Shown one piece after another: positions 47,196-62,337 of a stretch of DNA of 64,000 nucleotides; within the stretch, counting starts at the first letter, position 1; each line of letters opens with the position of its first letter. The notes under the pieces were generated by a model. The model saw nothing but the letters and a program-made list of their open reading frames with translations. It was not told where the DNA came from and searched no databases. Source of the stretch: an uncultured Oceanospirillaceae bacterium. GTDB lineage: Bacteria; Pseudomonadota; Gammaproteobacteria; Pseudomonadales; Balneatricaceae. The translations under genes were made by a program, and so were the position numbers. The DNA lies in NCBI GenBank assembly GCA_913057435.1, contig CAJXNY010000023.1:19801-83800 (forward strand). The letters are read 5' to 3'.

Positions 47196-47229
47196 TTTTC
47201 AGCTTCGTTTCAGAGCCGTCTCATATTAT
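47196..47229 (+). promoter_or_regulatory. TTTTCAG-N4-GTTTCAG box plus -10-like TATTAT (copy 1)
   Basis: TTTTCAGCTTCGTTTCAG at 47196-47213, 10 nt gap, TATTAT 47224-47229. Confidence 0.75.
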
Positions 47230-47308: not shown

Positions 47309-47521
47309 ATGAAAGCAATCATCACAACCGTCGCTCTGACTTCCGCCCTGATCGCTGGTACTGCTGCGGCAGGTACTGTCAGCGTTGACCAGTCTCAGTA
47401 CGGTAACGGCATTGGCTTCAGCACCACATCTCACTACGACAGCGTAGAGAAAGTGACCATCGATGGCGCGAACCTGGGCTCCAATGCTGGCGAAACAGGC
47501 CTGTATATTGGCAGCAAGTAA
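47309..47521 (+). CDS. Secreted mini-protein, LYIGSK family, paralog 1
   Basis: 70 aa; signal peptide ending GTAAAG; TVSVDQSQYGNGIGFSTTSHYDSVEKVTIDGANLGSNAGETGLYIGSK; GAGGATCACATC RBS context shared by paralogs. Confidence 0.85.
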   Translation: MKAIITTVALTSALIAGTAAAGTVSVDQSQYGNGIGFSTTSHYDSVEKVTIDGANLGSNAGETGLYIGSK

Positions 47522-47749: not shown

Positions 47750-47974
47750 ATGAAAGCAATCATCACAACCGTAGCCCTGACTTCCGCCCTGACTTCCGCC
47801 CTGATCGCTGGTACTGCTGCGGCAGGTACTGTCAGCGTTGATCAGTCCCAGTATGGTAACGGTATTGGCTTCAGCACTGCTTCGCACTACGACAGCGTTG
47901 AAAAAGTGACCATCGATGGTGCGAACCTGAGCTCTAATGCCGGTGAAACAGGCCTGTACATCGGCAGCAAGTAA
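47750..47974 (+). CDS. Secreted mini-protein, LYIGSK family, paralog 2
   Basis: 74 aa; near-identical to paralog 1 with LTSA duplicated in the signal peptide. Confidence 0.85.
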   Translation: MKAIITTVALTSALTSALIAGTAAAGTVSVDQSQYGNGIGFSTASHYDSVEKVTIDGANLSSNAGETGLYIGSK

Positions 47975-48080: not shown

Positions 48081-48797
48081 TCAGCCCGGTTCCTGCCATA
48101 TGACCGTTGTCATCAGCATATAGCCCGCTCCGTAAACGGTTTTGATCAGTTGCGGGGCTCTGGGGTCCTGTTCTATCTTTTTGCGCAGCCGTGACATTCG
48201 CACATCGATACTGCGGTCATAAGGAATGCTCTGTTCTCCCAGCAGCTGGTCTCGCGACAGGATCTGTTGCGGGGCGTGCAACAGCGCGCAGAGCATCTCT
48301 GCTTCGGCGCTGCTGAGCGCCGTCTGTTTACCGTTGCTGTGGCTGAGGGTCAGTGTTGCCGGGTCATAGCACCAGCTGGCGAAGTGGGCCTGCTGCAGCC
48401 GGGCAGGTTGCTGCGCCGTGTCGACCTTTTCCAGCCGCCGCAGCAGGCTGTGTACGCGTGCAACCAGCTCCCGTGGGTCGAAGGGTTTGGTGATATAGTC
48501 ATCCGCGCCCAGCTCTAACCCCAGCACCCGGTCCGGCAGGCTGCCACGGCCCGACAGGATCATCACGCCCATCTGCGGATGGTCACAGAGCTGGCGAACC
48601 AGCCCCAGACCGTCCATATCCGGCAGGCCCAGATCGACGATACATAATGCCGGTGCCCGCTGTTTCAACGCCTGGCAGGCCTGCTGCCCGGTATTAAATG
48701 CGTGAGCCGTGTAACCGTAATGCTCCAGTTCTGAGCAAACCAGGTCACAGATATCGGTTTCGTCATCAATTACGTAGATCAGACCAGCGCTACTCAC
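48081..48797 (-). CDS. OmpR/PhoB-family response regulator
   Basis: IYVIDDETDICDLV...IVDLGLPDMDGLGLV...GADDYITKPFDPRELVARV; winged helix SIDVRMSRLRKKIEQDPRAPQLIKTVYGAGYML. Confidence 0.95.
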   Translation of the reverse strand: MSSAGLIYVIDDETDICDLVCSELEHYGYTAHAFNTGQQACQALKQRAPALCIVDLGLPDMDGLGLVRQLCDHPQMGVMILSGRGSLPDRVLGLELGADDYITKPFDPRELVARVHSLLRRLEKVDTAQQPARLQQAHFASWCYDPATLTLSHSNGKQTALSSAEAEMLCALLHAPQQILSRDQLLGEQSIPYDRSIDVRMSRLRKKIEQDPRAPQLIKTVYGAGYMLMTTVIWQEPG

Positions 48798-48834
48798 ATC
48801 AGGCTCTCGTTCCGGTTTGGAGGTTGTCGATCGT

Positions 48835-51627
48835 TTATCGGTTGCAGGCTTCGCCCAGTGCTGTTTTTAAGGCCGCCTGATCGAACGGTTTACGCAGCAT
48901 ATGAAAGCGCTGCTGCTGGCCGCTGGCGGTTTGTTGCTCCCAGGCGTAGCCACTGATCAACAGAGTATGGGCGGTGGGCATTTTCTGCTGCAGCAGGTCG
49001 GCCAGACCAAAACCATTCAGCCGGCCGGGCATGTTGATATCGGATACCATGCCATACAGGCTGTCCAGCACCGGAATCAACTGTTCGGCTTCGTCACTGT
49101 CAGACGCCTCGATCACTGCAAAGCCCAGCCCAACCAGCTGTTCGCGGACGACTGTGCGGACATCGGTATCGTCTTCAACCAGCAATATCAGTTTGCCACG
49201 GTTATCCTGGTCGGTCGATTCTGTCACGGGTTGGGGGTGGGTCTGTGTGATCGGTTGTGGTGGCTCCGCGGCTGGCAGTAGCAGTGAAATCGTTGCGCCC
49301 TGGCCGGGTGTGCTGACGATGCGAATATAACCGCTGGATTGTTTGATAAAGCCATACACCATACTGAGGCCCAGCCCGGAACCCCCGCCGGACATCCGGG
49401 TGGTGAAAAACGGCTCGAAGGCCTGCTGTAACGCGTCTGCGCTGAAACCACAGCCGCTGTCTGTAATATCAATCTGAATATACCGGCCTGGCGGAACAGC
49501 CTCATCATAGTGCTCAGGGTGCTGGATGTTGTGCTCGGCTACGTGAAAAACGATAGCGCCGCCGTCGGGCATGGCATCACGGGCATTAAGCGCCAGATTG
49601 ATCAGTGCGTTCTCCAGCAGGTGAGGGTCAGCAACCAGCATGAGCGTCGGGGGGACCGGCTGGCAGACCAGCTCGATATCGGCAGGAAACGTACTGCTTA
49701 GCAGTTCGATCAGCTCCTGTAGCAGGCTGGCGGGTTTGACACTGCGTGGGCTCAGGGCCTGACGGCGGGAAAATGTCAGCAGCCGTCCGGTGATGTCGGC
49801 CCCGCGCCGGGAGGCACGGATCGCCGGTTTCAGATAGCGGTGCAGGTTGTCATCCTCTGCGTAGTGGTCACTGGCTGCCAGCAGATTCCCCAGGGTAATT
49901 GATAACAGATTGTTAAAGTCATGGGCCAGCCCGCCCGCCAGCTGGCCCGTTGCATTCATGCGCTGAGCTTCTGTCAGGCGGCGTTCGGCTTCTTTCTCGG
50001 CGGTAATATCCAGTGACAGGTTAAGCAGGCCGGTAATCTCACCCGTAATGGTGCGGTCGGGCAGCAGGGTGCGTCGGGTAATAACGGTTTTTCCGTCCCG
50101 CTCGAACGGGTATTCGTAACGGACTTCTTCACCGGCCAGGCATTGCGCGATCGGCTGCTTAATCGTGGCCATCATCTCTGGCCCGATAACAGACGCGATG
50201 GGCTGGCCGATAATCTCGGCTTTGGCTTTGCAGAACTGATCAGCGTAACCCTGATTAACAAACTGATAGTGGAGCTGGTCATCCAGGTAGGCAATCTGGG
50301 CTGGAAGTGCATCCAGAATAAGCCGCTGTCGCTCCTCCAGCTGGGCCAGCTCGGCGGTGCGGCATTTTACCGTTGCGTCCAGGGTGTGAAAGTTATTGCG
50401 TAACTGCAATACCATGCTGTCGAAGGTCTCGGCCAGGGCGCCGAGTTCGTCGTCTCGTACAATGCCACTGCTGGCGCTGAGATCACCGTTGCGAACCTGG
50501 GCGGCCGTGCGGGCCAGTTGTTTTATCGGCGCGGTGATACGCCGGATAAAGAACAGTGCCAGTGAAATAGCCAGCATAATAGAGATCAGCGCAATGGTCA
50601 GAATACGCTGGCTGAGCACAGTGGAGCTGTGGCGTAGCTCGTCGATGTACACCGATGAACAGATATACCAGCCGAAGCCATCCAGTGAACGTACCACCGA
50701 CAGTTTGTCGTAAATATAGTTGCCGGGGTCGGAAGGGCGATCCCACTTGTATTGTAACTCCTGACCGGTGTCGGCGATGGCGACCAGTTCTTTGATGATC
50801 GGCTGCCCGGTGATCGGGTTAAGCAGTTTCAGTGCGCTGGTTTTATCAATCGTGGGGTTGGGGTGTGCCAGAAGGTGGCCTTCACTGTCGAAGATGTAGA
50901 CGTAGCCGGTTTTAGCGATACGGATCTCACGTAAGGCATCACGGACCTCCTGAATAGCGGCCTGTTTGCGCTGCTGAACCTCCGCTTCAATGTCATCCAG
51001 ATAGAGACCTGAGCCGATCACAAACCCCCACCGAGGGAAGTTTTTCACATAAGAGATCTTCTCAATGGGCGTTTCACTGTGCAGGCGTTGCCATGAGTAT
51101 TGATAAAACCCTTCCCCGTCGCGAATCGCGGTATTAATCACGCGCTGAATGGTGGCTGTGCGTTCGCTACCCTGCTCGGTGCGTGCATCAAATTCCTGAT
51201 AGCGCGGGTCCGGGTGGGAGAGCAGCACTGAATCATGGTCGGCCAGCCAGATATACCCGTCGTCGCTATAGGTAAAGTTGCGCAGGCTGTTAAATATCCG
51301 CTGCCGAGCCTGTTCCACACTGATATGGCCCTGTTCGGCTTCCGCGTAGATTTGCTGGACATGGGCTTCGGTCAGGGTGACCACGGCCTTGAGGCGCTGT
51401 TTATGCGCGTCCAGTGCCTGGCGTCGATAGCCTTCAAGGTTGGCGTACATCTTGTTGGCCAGCTGAAACACATTGTTCAGTGCCAGGCGGCTGGAGTTAC
51501 GTTCAATCTCGTACACCTGCTGCTGAATCAGCGGTACGGAGTAGATATAGATAGCGCTAAACATAACGGCGATGATCAGCATGACCACTGCAAAAAAACG
51601 CCGAAACAGTTTGGAGTCCGAGAACAT
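48835..51627 (-). CDS. Hybrid sensor histidine kinase with periplasmic Cache domains, HAMP, PAS, HisKA/HATPase and C-terminal receiver
   Basis: GYIWLADHDSVLLSHPDPRYQ / GYVYIFDSEGHLLAHPNP Cache repeats, LAGGLAHDFNNLLSITLGN H-box, SGLGLSMVYGFIKQ, LILLVEDDTDVRTVV receiver. Confidence 0.93.
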   Translation of the reverse strand: MFSDSKLFRRFFAVVMLIIAVMFSAIYIYSVPLIQQQVYEIERNSSRLALNNVFQLANKMYANLEGYRRQALDAHKQRLKAVVTLTEAHVQQIYAEAEQGHISVEQARQRIFNSLRNFTYSDDGYIWLADHDSVLLSHPDPRYQEFDARTEQGSERTATIQRVINTAIRDGEGFYQYSWQRLHSETPIEKISYVKNFPRWGFVIGSGLYLDDIEAEVQQRKQAAIQEVRDALREIRIAKTGYVYIFDSEGHLLAHPNPTIDKTSALKLLNPITGQPIIKELVAIADTGQELQYKWDRPSDPGNYIYDKLSVVRSLDGFGWYICSSVYIDELRHSSTVLSQRILTIALISIMLAISLALFFIRRITAPIKQLARTAAQVRNGDLSASSGIVRDDELGALAETFDSMVLQLRNNFHTLDATVKCRTAELAQLEERQRLILDALPAQIAYLDDQLHYQFVNQGYADQFCKAKAEIIGQPIASVIGPEMMATIKQPIAQCLAGEEVRYEYPFERDGKTVITRRTLLPDRTITGEITGLLNLSLDITAEKEAERRLTEAQRMNATGQLAGGLAHDFNNLLSITLGNLLAASDHYAEDDNLHRYLKPAIRASRRGADITGRLLTFSRRQALSPRSVKPASLLQELIELLSSTFPADIELVCQPVPPTLMLVADPHLLENALINLALNARDAMPDGGAIVFHVAEHNIQHPEHYDEAVPPGRYIQIDITDSGCGFSADALQQAFEPFFTTRMSGGGSGLGLSMVYGFIKQSSGYIRIVSTPGQGATISLLLPAAEPPQPITQTHPQPVTESTDQDNRGKLILLVEDDTDVRTVVREQLVGLGFAVIEASDSDEAEQLIPVLDSLYGMVSDINMPGRLNGFGLADLLQQKMPTAHTLLISGYAWEQQTASGQQQRFHMLRKPFDQAALKTALGEACNR

Positions 51628-51822
51628 GGCGACGACCTGAACACTGATTACACTGCTCAGTGTATCGACAAACCTCCGGCTGAACTGCCTGTTGTTACAT
51701 TTCGTTAGAATTGCGACAAAGTCTGGCAAAACTCCTGTTGTTGAATGGGTAACCGGGCCGTGCAGGACCTCTCTGCATGCTGGCTACGCATAAAAATAAC
51801 AACGGATGCAGGAGAGTGTGTC

Positions 51823-59150: not shown

Positions 59151-59184
59151 TTTTCAGGTTCGTTTCAGTGCTGCCTCATAGTAT
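59151..59184 (+). promoter_or_regulatory. TTTTCAG-N4-GTTTCAG box plus -10-like TAGTAT (copy 3)
   Basis: TTTTCAGGTTCGTTTCAG at 59151-59168, 10 nt gap, TAGTAT 59179-59184. Confidence 0.75.
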
Positions 59185-59250: not shown

Positions 59251-59475
59251 ATGAAAGCACTTAACAGCACACTGACTGCTTCTATCGCCCTGGCCGCTGC
59301 ACTGGCTGCCGGTTCTGTTTCCGCTGCATCTGTTAGCGTACAGCAGTCCCAGTACGGTAACGGCATTGGTTTCAATACTACATCTCACTATGACAGTGTT
59401 GAAAAAGTAACCATCGACGGTGCAAATCTGGGCTCTAATGTTGATGCGACTGGCCTGTATATCGGTAGCAAATAA
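59251..59475 (+). CDS. Secreted mini-protein, LYIGSK family, paralog 3
   Basis: 74 aa; signal peptide ...GSVSAA; SVSVQQSQYGNGIGFNTTSHYDSVEKVTIDGANLGSNVDATGLYIGSK. Confidence 0.85.
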   Translation: MKALNSTLTASIALAAALAAGSVSAASVSVQQSQYGNGIGFNTTSHYDSVEKVTIDGANLGSNVDATGLYIGSK

Positions 59476-59602: not shown

Positions 59603-59636
59603 TTTTCAGGTTCGTTTCAGTGCTTCTTTATATTAT
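59603..59636 (+). promoter_or_regulatory. TTTTCAG-N4-GTTTCAG box plus -10-like TATTAT (copy 4)
   Basis: TTTTCAGGTTCGTTTCAG at 59603-59620, 10 nt gap, TATTAT 59631-59636. Confidence 0.75.
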
Positions 59637-59702: not shown

Positions 59703-59927
59703 ATGAAAGCACTTAACAACACACTGACTGCTTCGATCGCCCTGGCCGCTGCCCTGACTGCTGGCTCTGTCTCTGCTGCTTCTGTTAGCGTTCAGCAGTC
59801 TCAGTACGGTAATGGCATCGCCGTCAGCTCTGCCTCTCACTACGACAGTGTTGAGCAGGTGACAATCGATGGCGTTAACCTGACATCGAATGTGGGTAAT
59901 GCCAGCTTGTATATCGGTAGTAAATAA
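59703..59927 (+). CDS. Secreted mini-protein, LYIGSK family, paralog 4
   Basis: 74 aa; SVSVQQSQYGNGIAVSSASHYDSVEQVTIDGVNLTSNVGNASLYIGSK. Confidence 0.85.
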   Translation: MKALNNTLTASIALAAALTAGSVSAASVSVQQSQYGNGIAVSSASHYDSVEQVTIDGVNLTSNVGNASLYIGSK

Positions 59928-60116: not shown

Positions 60117-60329
60117 ATGAAAAAGATTCTGACTTCAACTGCACTGATCTCTTTACTGCTGGCAGGTAGCGCTTCAGCCGGGTCTGTTAGCGTACAGCAA
60201 AGTTACCTGGGTGGTGGCACAACCATTCAATCAATGATTGAGTATCAGAATAACCACCAGACCATGGCAACCGGTGCGAACTTACCGTCCAATGCCGCAG
60301 AAAAAGGGCTTTATATCGGTAGTAAATAA
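60117..60329 (+). CDS. Secreted mini-protein, LYIGSK family, divergent paralog 5
   Basis: 70 aa; signal peptide; GSVSVQQSYLGGGTTIQSMIEYQNNHQTMATGANLPSNAAEKGLYIGSK. Confidence 0.8.
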   Translation: MKKILTSTALISLLLAGSASAGSVSVQQSYLGGGTTIQSMIEYQNNHQTMATGANLPSNAAEKGLYIGSK

Positions 60330-60401: not shown

Positions 60402-60435
60402 TTTTCAGGTTAGTTTCAGACCAAAAAACTATGAT
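60402..60435 (+). promoter_or_regulatory. TTTTCAG-N4-GTTTCAG box plus -10-like TATGAT (copy 5)
   Basis: TTTTCAGGTTAGTTTCAG at 60402-60419, 10 nt gap, TATGAT 60430-60435. Confidence 0.75.
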
Positions 60436-60553: not shown

Positions 60554-60865
60554 ATGAAAAATGTAATGAAAACGGCACTGGTTGCCTCGCTTCTTGTTTC
60601 AACGTCAGCACTGGCAGGCCCGCTGACTCACTCGCTGGACCCACAGGTTGGTGTTGAAGTGCCGATGTATGCGACACAGGCAAACACCCCGTTTGATTTC
60701 AGAACCTTGCTGGGCGTTATTATTCCAGGTGTGGGCAAAGAAGTGCACATGGGTGATCTGGTATCAGCTGAAGTTGCTGCTGCCGCATACGACCCGGACG
60801 GTGTACCCAACACCTGGCGCGCGATTACCCCGGCGGTCGGTGTTGAGACAAATATGATGTACTGA
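60554..60865 (+). CDS. Secreted small protein, 103 aa, unknown function
   Basis: Signal peptide MKNVMKTALVASLLVSTSALAG; preceded by gggaggatacgacaATG. Confidence 0.75.
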   Translation: MKNVMKTALVASLLVSTSALAGPLTHSLDPQVGVEVPMYATQANTPFDFRTLLGVIIPGVGKEVHMGDLVSAEVAAAAYDPDGVPNTWRAITPAVGVETNMMY

Positions 60866-60956: not shown

Positions 60957-60990
60957 AAGCCCGGTTTCGTTATGATTCCGGGCTTTTTTT
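60957..60990 (+). terminator. Rho-independent terminator after 103-aa protein
   Basis: AAGCCCGG-N13-CCGGGCTTTTTTT. Confidence 0.8.
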
Positions 60991-61881: not shown

Positions 61882-62337
61882 TCAGGGCTTCTCAACAATA
61901 TCGGTACGGGTGCTGTCGAAAAATTCCAGCACTTCTTGTGACTCTCGGGCAGGGACGCTGAATTTACCCAGTGTATTTTTAAGGGCGGTGATCAGTGTAT
62001 CCCAGTCCTGTTGGCTGATACGCATCCCTTTATGAGACAGCTTCATTTCACGGCCGGTGTAGTACAGCGGGCCACCGGCCTTGGCGACAACAAAATCAAC
62101 AATCAACTGCTTCTCTCGGGTAATACCGTCGTCACCCCGGTGCGCCCAGAAACGGCCCAGTTTTTCATCGGCAGCAATCTGTAGCACAACATCATCAACA
62201 ACAGCGCTGATCGCATCAAAGCCACCCAGCCGGCTGTAAAGCGAGCTATCGCTGTCAGCCTGTGCTGTGGCTGTTGTCAGAGTAAAAGCAATGGGAATAA
62301 TACAAAGCAGGGCTGATTTTCTGATACGTTTTAGCAT
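61882..62337 (-). CDS. Exported group 1 truncated-hemoglobin-like protein
   Basis: Signal peptide; SLYSRLGGFDAISAVVDDVVLQIAADEKLGRFW...QLIVDFVVAKAGGPLYYTGREMKLSHKGMRIS. Confidence 0.85.
   Translation of the reverse strand: MLKRIRKSALLCIIPIAFTLTTATAQADSDSSLYSRLGGFDAISAVVDDVVLQIAADEKLGRFWAHRGDDGITREKQLIVDFVVAKAGGPLYYTGREMKLSHKGMRISQQDWDTLITALKNTLGKFSVPARESQEVLEFFDSTRTDIVEKP

What the first reader, a model, noticed from the sequence alone, without database searches (positions are those of the whole stretch)
60554..60865. Unrelated 103-aa secreted protein sharing the mini-protein promoter box
Seen: the protein (mature PLTHSLDPQVGVEVPMYATQANTPFDFRTLLGVIIPGVGKEVHMGDLVSAEVAAAAYDPDGVPNTWRAITPAVGVETNMMY) lacks the LYIGSK tail but has the same box 135 bp upstream of its start, and VGVE occurs near both ends. 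Inference: a functional partner (processing, assembly or receptor) of the mini-proteins.
Basis: partly seen in the sequence, partly recalled or inferred. Interest (0 to 1): 0.6.

Follow-up and report, generated by a model that had tools for sequence, protein, structure and literature searches.

The report
Secreted protein of a stress-sensing regulon
The 103-residue protein is a real, exported, taxonomically restricted protein whose gene is switched on from the same promoter element as the neighbouring mini-proteins; that element looks like the binding site of a two-component regulator of the DbfQRS type (envelope-stress sensing in Vibrio), so the protein is one of many fast-evolving secreted products of that regulator rather than a demonstrated partner of the mini-proteins.

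Summary
Gene 60554-60865 encodes a 103-aa Sec-type protein; the box TTTCAGGTTAGTTTCAG (60403-60419) ends 135 bp upstream. A homolog (58% identity, dN/dS about 0.2) exists in one congener, with the same neighbours and its own box.

The box is an 11-bp direct repeat (OmpR/PhoB-type regulator site) followed, 10 nt later, by a TAnnnT -10 element. It occurs 7 times in the 4.76-Mb genome (reversed control 0): four LYIGSK genes, this gene, one likely small RNA, and a PepSY–response regulator–histidine kinase operon. In sister genera (Neptunomonas, Pontibacterium/Marinobacterium, Amphritea) it precedes the same operon, tandem small secreted proteins, or metal-binding bufferin/HvfA peptides. The operon matches the DbfQRS module.

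The protein is a product of that regulon. It shows three VExxL/M motifs at positions seen in Neptunomonas regulon proteins (no shuffle in 20,000 as good), but profile–profile comparison was not significant: common ancestry is probable, not proven.

Molecular role: inferred envelope-stress effector or kinase modulator; no fold could be predicted.

The parts
60554..60865 (+). gene of the 103-aa secreted protein (the finding)
   Evidence: ORF with RBS; 58% identical homolog in G001; dN/dS about 0.2
60554..60616 (+). predicted Sec signal peptide MKNVMKTALVASLLVSTSALA
   Evidence: read from the sequence; no signal-peptide program available
60647..60673 (+). repeat 1, VGVEVPMYA (residues 32-40)
   Evidence: aligns with SVEANL in Neptunomonas proteins
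60731..60757 (+). repeat 2, VGKEVHMGD (residues 60-68)
   Evidence: highest-scoring match to the Neptunomonas/STE..KQC motif matrix
60836..60862 (+). repeat 3, VGVETNMMY, at the C-terminus (residues 95-103)
   Evidence: matches C-terminal STEAQL/SVENHL repeat
60403..60419 (+). box TTTCAGGTTAGTTTCAG, putative response-regulator operator of the finding gene
   Evidence: homolog gene in G001 has TTTCAGTCAGGTTTCAG
60430..60435 (+). -10 element TATGAT, exactly 10 nt after the box
   Evidence: position fixed in 71 collected sites: T 0.90, A 0.96, T 0.96
60957..60990 (+). terminator-like hairpin AAGCCCGG...CCGGGCTTTTTTT after the gene
   Evidence: read from the sequence
59152..59168 (+). box of LYIGSK gene 59251-59475
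59251..59475 (+). LYIGSK mini-protein, 74 aa, co-regulated
59604..59620 (+). box of LYIGSK gene 59703-59927
59703..59927 (+). LYIGSK mini-protein, 74 aa, co-regulated
60117..60329 (+). LYIGSK mini-protein, 70 aa; no exact box found upstream
47197..47213 (+). box of LYIGSK gene 47309-47521
47309..47521 (+). LYIGSK mini-protein, 70 aa
47640..47656 (+). box of LYIGSK gene 47750-47974
47750..47974 (+). LYIGSK mini-protein, 74 aa

Best explanation
The protein is a secreted target of a DbfQRS-like two-component regulon. When the envelope is stressed, the histidine kinase (held in check by a small periplasmic PepSY protein) phosphorylates its OmpR-type response regulator; two regulator molecules bind the two TTTCAG half-sites 11 bp apart, overlapping the -35 region, and recruit RNA polymerase to the -10 placed 10 nt downstream. 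This transcribes the gene together with the LYIGSK genes, the two-component operon itself and probably a small RNA. The product is exported by Sec and acts outside the cytoplasm as a small, probably flexible, fast-evolving envelope-stress protein that presents three VExxL/M motifs. Shown: gene, box, promoter geometry, homolog with conserved synteny, box upstream of the PepSY-regulator-kinase operon in 14 family genomes. Strongly inferred: this regulator binds the box. Inferred only: envelope-stress signal (from the V. cholerae system), export, and the role of the motifs (most likely contact sites for an envelope component or the kinase).
For: Box 7 times per genome against 0 reversed. Fixed -10 spacing in 71 sites, not used to select them. 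Box precedes the PepSY-RR-HK operon, between pgpA and ribA in the operons read in full, in G000, G001 (1 mismatch), G002, G003 and in Neptunomonas and Pontibacterium/Marinobacterium genomes, sometimes with a small secreted protein as first gene. Outside the family the box precedes response-regulator genes 9 times in 81 against 41 in 1649 random positions. Regulator nearest PmrA/QseB models, kinase nearest PhoQ. Homolog with same synteny and box. Three-motif positional score of this protein 22.05, best of 20,000 shuffles 9.36; next best of 92 window ORFs -1.5; G001 homolog 8.04 against 7.96. DbfQRS: PepSY protein binds the kinase, membrane damage activates, module widespread (PMC12714742).
Against: No binding or expression data. 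HMMER on the mature sequence did not beat shuffles and hhalign of mature profiles was not significant (probability 1.2%), so relatedness to the Neptunomonas proteins rests on short motifs; the test windows were set after looking. AlphaFold2 gave no fold (mean pLDDT 43). The regulator could be another OmpR-type protein of this genome, for example the one at 48081-48797. The operator of the G001 homolog has a diverged spacer.
Confidence: 0.6

Rival explanations
1. Feedback ligand: the protein binds the periplasmic sensor domain of the kinase, or its PepSY partner, and tunes the two-component system, as DbfQ or CpxP do.
For: In Neptunomonas a three-motif protein (STE..KQC type) and in Pontibacterium/Marinobacterium a 75-aa VEGHL protein is the first gene of the two-component operon itself, under the same box. 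DbfQ is a precedent for a small periplasmic protein acting on such a kinase (PMC12714742).
Against: In this genome the gene is not in that operon; the first-gene slot is empty in G000 and G001. Common ancestry with those first-gene proteins is not proven.
Confidence: 0.2
2. Metal buffering: the protein binds copper or another metal in the periplasm through its Glu/His/Met motifs.
For: The same box drives BufA2, DUF2282 (bufferin-type) and HvfA metallophore precursors in sister genera and CzcC-like efflux genes in Marinobacter by appearance. Motifs contain E, H and M.
Against: No cysteine; few His; motifs in relatives (SVEANL, STEAQL) lack consistent metal ligands. This genome's own bufferin-type (MNIO) loci examined lack the box.
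Confidence: 0.13
3. One reading: a dedicated partner (processing, assembly or receptor) of the LYIGSK mini-proteins.
For: Adjacent and co-regulated in both genomes that have it.
Against: 13 of 15 genomes with LYIGSK-family genes lack it; the box regulates many unrelated genes; no enzyme-like domain.
Confidence: 0.1
4. The box is read by the cache-domain kinase and OmpR-type regulator encoded at 48081-51729 in the window, next to two LYIGSK genes.
For: Proximity to boxes at 47197 and 47640; OmpR-type regulators bind 11-bp direct repeats.
Against: It is not preceded by the box, whereas the PepSY-linked operon is, in many genomes; in G001 the 16.8-kb stretch read around the LYIGSK cluster holds no such pair.
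Confidence: 0.08
5. The ORF is not a real gene or the box match is chance.
For: No database family matches.
Against: Conserved homolog under purifying selection, conserved synteny and promoter.
Confidence: 0.01

Closest known systems
DbfQRS two-component module of Vibrio cholerae (PepSY protein DbfQ, regulator DbfR, kinase DbfS; PMC12714742) and its P. aeruginosa counterpart BqsRS/CarRS
   Same: Small exported PepSY protein encoded directly beside an OmpR-type regulator and a kinase; likely autoregulated; BqsR also binds an 11-bp-period direct repeat (TTAAG-N6-TTAAG) that can overlap the -35 (PMC4682146).
   Different: Operator sequence is TTTCAG-N5-TTTCAG, not TTAAG repeats; the targets here are small lineage-specific secreted proteins, bufferins and HvfA; no DbfR operator is given in the paper passages read here.
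UzcRS of Caulobacter (Zn/Cu/U-responsive)
   Same: Two-component regulon dominated by secreted and envelope proteins of unknown function (PMC8963506).
   Different: UzcR site is CATTAC-N6-TTAA.
Neptunomonas tandem ~95-aa secreted proteins and 105-aa STE..KQC proteins (no database family)
   Same: Same box; signal peptide; three (S/G)xExxL motifs near residues 10, 40 and the C-terminus of the mature chain.
   Different: Mature identity low; profile comparison not significant; Neptunomonas copies are multigene, this one is single.
LYIGSK mini-protein family
   Same: Same genomic cluster, same box, Sec-exported.
   Different: No LYIGSK tail; no significant motif similarity to the LYIGSK proteins of the window that were tested.

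Membership tests
DbfQRS-like two-component module (the regulator proposed for this box) | small secreted PepSY-domain protein encoded within a few genes of a kinase and regulator | tested here: met
   PepSY match E=0.0035 (bits below the Pfam cut-off) at residues 53-104 of the 106-aa protein, directly followed by regulator and kinase
DbfQRS-like two-component module (the regulator proposed for this box) | OmpR-type regulator and transmembrane kinase | tested here: met
   Response_reg + Trans_reg_C; HATPase_c, nearest model PhoQ
DbfQRS-like two-component module (the regulator proposed for this box) | PepSY protein binds the kinase sensor domain and output responds to membrane damage | not testable with these tools
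   known for V. cholerae only (PMC12714742)
TTTCAG-N5-TTTCAG regulon | exact box with TAnnnT 10 nt downstream | tested here: met
   60403-60419 and 60430-60435; 0-mismatch match
TTTCAG-N5-TTTCAG regulon | binding by the PepSY-linked regulator | not testable with these tools
   inferred from conserved box in front of that operon
Neptunomonas three-motif secreted proteins | three (S/G)xExxL motifs at conserved positions | tested here: met
   positional score beats 20,000 shuffles
Neptunomonas three-motif secreted proteins | significant whole-length profile similarity of the mature protein | tested here: not met
   hhalign probability 1.2%; HMMER mature score not above shuffles
LYIGSK mini-proteins | C-terminal LYIGSK-type tail | tested here: not met
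   protein ends ...VGVETNMMY
Bufferin/HvfA metallophores | Cys-containing core (GHNDC, SCEGT, EGKCG) and an MNIO enzyme gene nearby | tested here: not met
   no cysteine; no ncbifam/pfam match; no MNIO gene next to it

The most novel reading that the evidence does not exclude
Nitrincolaceae-type marine bacteria use one DbfQRS-like system to deploy a rapidly diversifying set of secreted proteins (LYIGSK tails, triple VExxL motifs, PLxAPKD repeats, WGxxVYDY repeats) that feed back on the kinase or coat the damaged envelope: a new kind of regulon-wide secreted effector family of which this protein is one member.
Probability: 0.2. Interest if true: 0.7.

Novelty: new variant of a known kind. Interest (0 to 1): 0.45.

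Why it matters
The targets and operator of DbfQRS-like modules, which occur across phyla, are poorly defined. A 17-bp operator with fixed -10 spacing, read off by comparison here, makes the regulon predictable from sequence, links it to copper-binding bufferins and oxidative repair in sister genera, and gives orphan secreted proteins such as this one a testable context: regulator deletion and promoter fusions would settle it quickly.

Tried and rejected
Family searches of the protein in Pfam, NCBIfam and PHROGs gave nothing credible; one PDB sequence hit (ribosome biogenesis protein NSA2, E=0.026) is taken as chance; no plasmid match. The protein-based scan of genome contigs found no relative (near genomes may be left out there). 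AlphaFold2 on the protein and on a Neptunomonas relative gave pLDDT 43 and 51, so no fold search was run. The weak hits were not pursued except the one in G051 (E=0.026), which proved to be a box-driven Neptunomonas protein. LYIGSK proteins as homologs of this protein: motif test negative. Bufferin-type (MNIO) loci of this genome as regulon members: no box in the loci scanned. FeuNPQ was considered from memory as a parallel and not pursued because no useful full text was found.

Full report
1. Observation. The ORF at 60554-60865 (+) codes for 103 aa with a good ribosome site and a Sec-type leader. The box TTTCAGGTTAGTTTCAG lies at 60403-60419, 135 bp before the ATG. The exact repeat TTTCAG-N5-TTTCAG occurs five times in the window, always on the + strand, upstream of four LYIGSK genes and this gene. 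In the 4.76-Mb genome TTTCAGNTTNGTTTCAG occurs seven times, all exact, and its reversed control not at all, even with one mismatch allowed.

2. The gene is real. One relative was found: 58% identity over nearly the full length in G001, a congener. Differences fall mostly at third codon positions and dN/dS is about 0.34/1.71. The neighbourhood is conserved: aminotransferase - LYIGSK genes - this gene - TauE/SafE-like permease (judged by similarity of the two permease ORFs). The G001 gene has its own box, TTTCAGTCAGGTTTCAG, again with a -10 (TAACAT) 10 nt later. Profile searches found no other homolog in 117 genomes of the family or in 392 of the order, so the protein is lineage-restricted.

3. 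What the box is. Half-sites 11 bp apart on the same face of the helix, overlapping the -35 position, are what OmpR/PhoB-type response regulators bind (general knowledge; BqsR TTAAG-N6-TTAAG is a published example, PMC4682146). In 71 distinct sites collected by the box alone, a TAnnnT element stands exactly 10 nt downstream with frequencies T 0.90, A 0.96, T 0.96: independent evidence of one promoter type. The other two sites of this genome are informative. C30:44701 precedes an operon PepSY protein - OmpR-type regulator - histidine kinase, between pgpA and ribA (pgpA and ribA named by eye). C4:158881 precedes a unit of about 75 nt ending in an intrinsic terminator, conserved in G003 and, with compensatory stem changes, in G002: probably a small RNA.

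4. The regulon in relatives. In the family the exact box is found in 25 of 117 genomes; Neptunomonas carries up to 11. Downstream genes are: the PepSY-regulator-kinase operon, often with a small secreted protein as first gene; tandem ~95-aa secreted proteins in Neptunomonas; BufA2, DUF2282 and HvfA metallophore precursors; a methionine sulfoxide reductase with an apparent leader; and other short secreted proteins. Of the 15 genomes of the three genera g1, g8 and g12 with an exact box somewhere, 14 have a box before the PepSY operon (13 exact, G001 with one mismatch), judged by comparing positions. Outside the family the box precedes response-regulator genes in 9 of 81 cases against 41 of 1649 random positions. 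The simplest reading is that this regulator binds the box and activates itself and the others.

5. Relation to other regulon proteins. The protein carries VGVEVPMYA, VGKEVHMGD and VGVETNMMY at mature positions 11, 39 and 74. Neptunomonas ~95-aa proteins carry SVEANL, SVEAHL and STEAQL at about 10, 39 and 70, and the STE..KQC proteins at about 11, 42 and 75. A matrix trained only on the Neptunomonas proteins and applied to the mature sequence in matching windows gives 22.05; the best of 20,000 shuffles is 9.36 and the next best of 92 window ORFs is -1.5; the G001 homolog scores 8.04 against 7.96. The windows were chosen after seeing the pattern, and whole-length methods fail: hhalign probability 1.2%, HMMER on the mature part no better than shuffles (full-length scores there are carried by the signal peptide). 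I call the relationship probable, not shown.

6. Function. The closest studied system is DbfQRS of V. cholerae: a small periplasmic PepSY protein binds the kinase and shifts it to phosphatase; LPS defects, polymyxin B and thymol activate the regulator; such modules are widespread (PMC12714742). By analogy this protein is made under envelope stress. What it then does is unknown; low AlphaFold2 confidence and rapid evolution fit a flexible protein with three short contact motifs. A feedback role on the kinase is the most interesting rival because three-motif proteins sit as the first gene of that operon in Neptunomonas; a metal role is suggested only by co-regulated metallophores in sister genera.

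7. Co-regulation and linkage are confirmed; partnership is not. LYIGSK-family genes occur in 15 family genomes, up to 10 copies, with the box in Marinobacterium-like and Pontibacterium genomes, and 13 of these lack this protein.

8. Verdict. A new lineage-specific protein in a regulon of a known kind, whose operator and content are described here by comparison; interest moderate, mainly for the regulon.

Noticed in passing
L015 about 1501-1620 (G000 C4:158881 onward); L026 and L028 at the same offset: Box followed by a ~75-nt unit with core CCTCGATGC and an intrinsic terminator whose stem changes are compensatory in G002: likely a small RNA of the same regulon.
   Followed up: partly
L273, L272, L277, L290 (Amphritea); L278, L281, L279, L291: LYIGSK-family proteins form tandem arrays (up to 10 copies in one Amphritea genome); boxes found upstream in Marinobacterium-like and Pontibacterium genomes but not in the Amphritea loci read.
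   Followed up: partly
L074 (Neptunomonas sp. OB1) and L025 (G002): First gene of the two-component operon encodes repeat proteins of quite different sequence: PLxAPKD repeats (215 aa) and DHWGKSVYDYQ repeats (314 aa).
   Followed up: no
window 48081-51729 (-): Cache/PAS-domain hybrid kinase and OmpR-type regulator beside the 47-kb LYIGSK pair; not preceded by the box.
   Followed up: partly
window 61882-62337 (-): Bac_globin (truncated haemoglobin-like) protein with an apparent signal peptide, unusual for this family.
   Followed up: no
L261 (G000 C21:30334-34119): Bufferin-type operon (small Cys protein, MNIO, DUF2063-like partner) with an ECF-type sigma gene on the opposite strand and no TTTCAG box, whereas sister genera put bufferins under the box.
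   Followed up: partly
L115, L122, L144, L155, L164, L201, L220: Clostridial response-regulator genes preceded by the same TTTCAG repeat and -10 spacing, suggesting a DNA-binding specificity conserved across phyla.
   Followed up: partly
L123, L134, L138, L148, L172 (Marinobacter and relatives): Box 5' of genes that look like CzcC-type outer-membrane efflux proteins (judged by eye).
   Followed up: no
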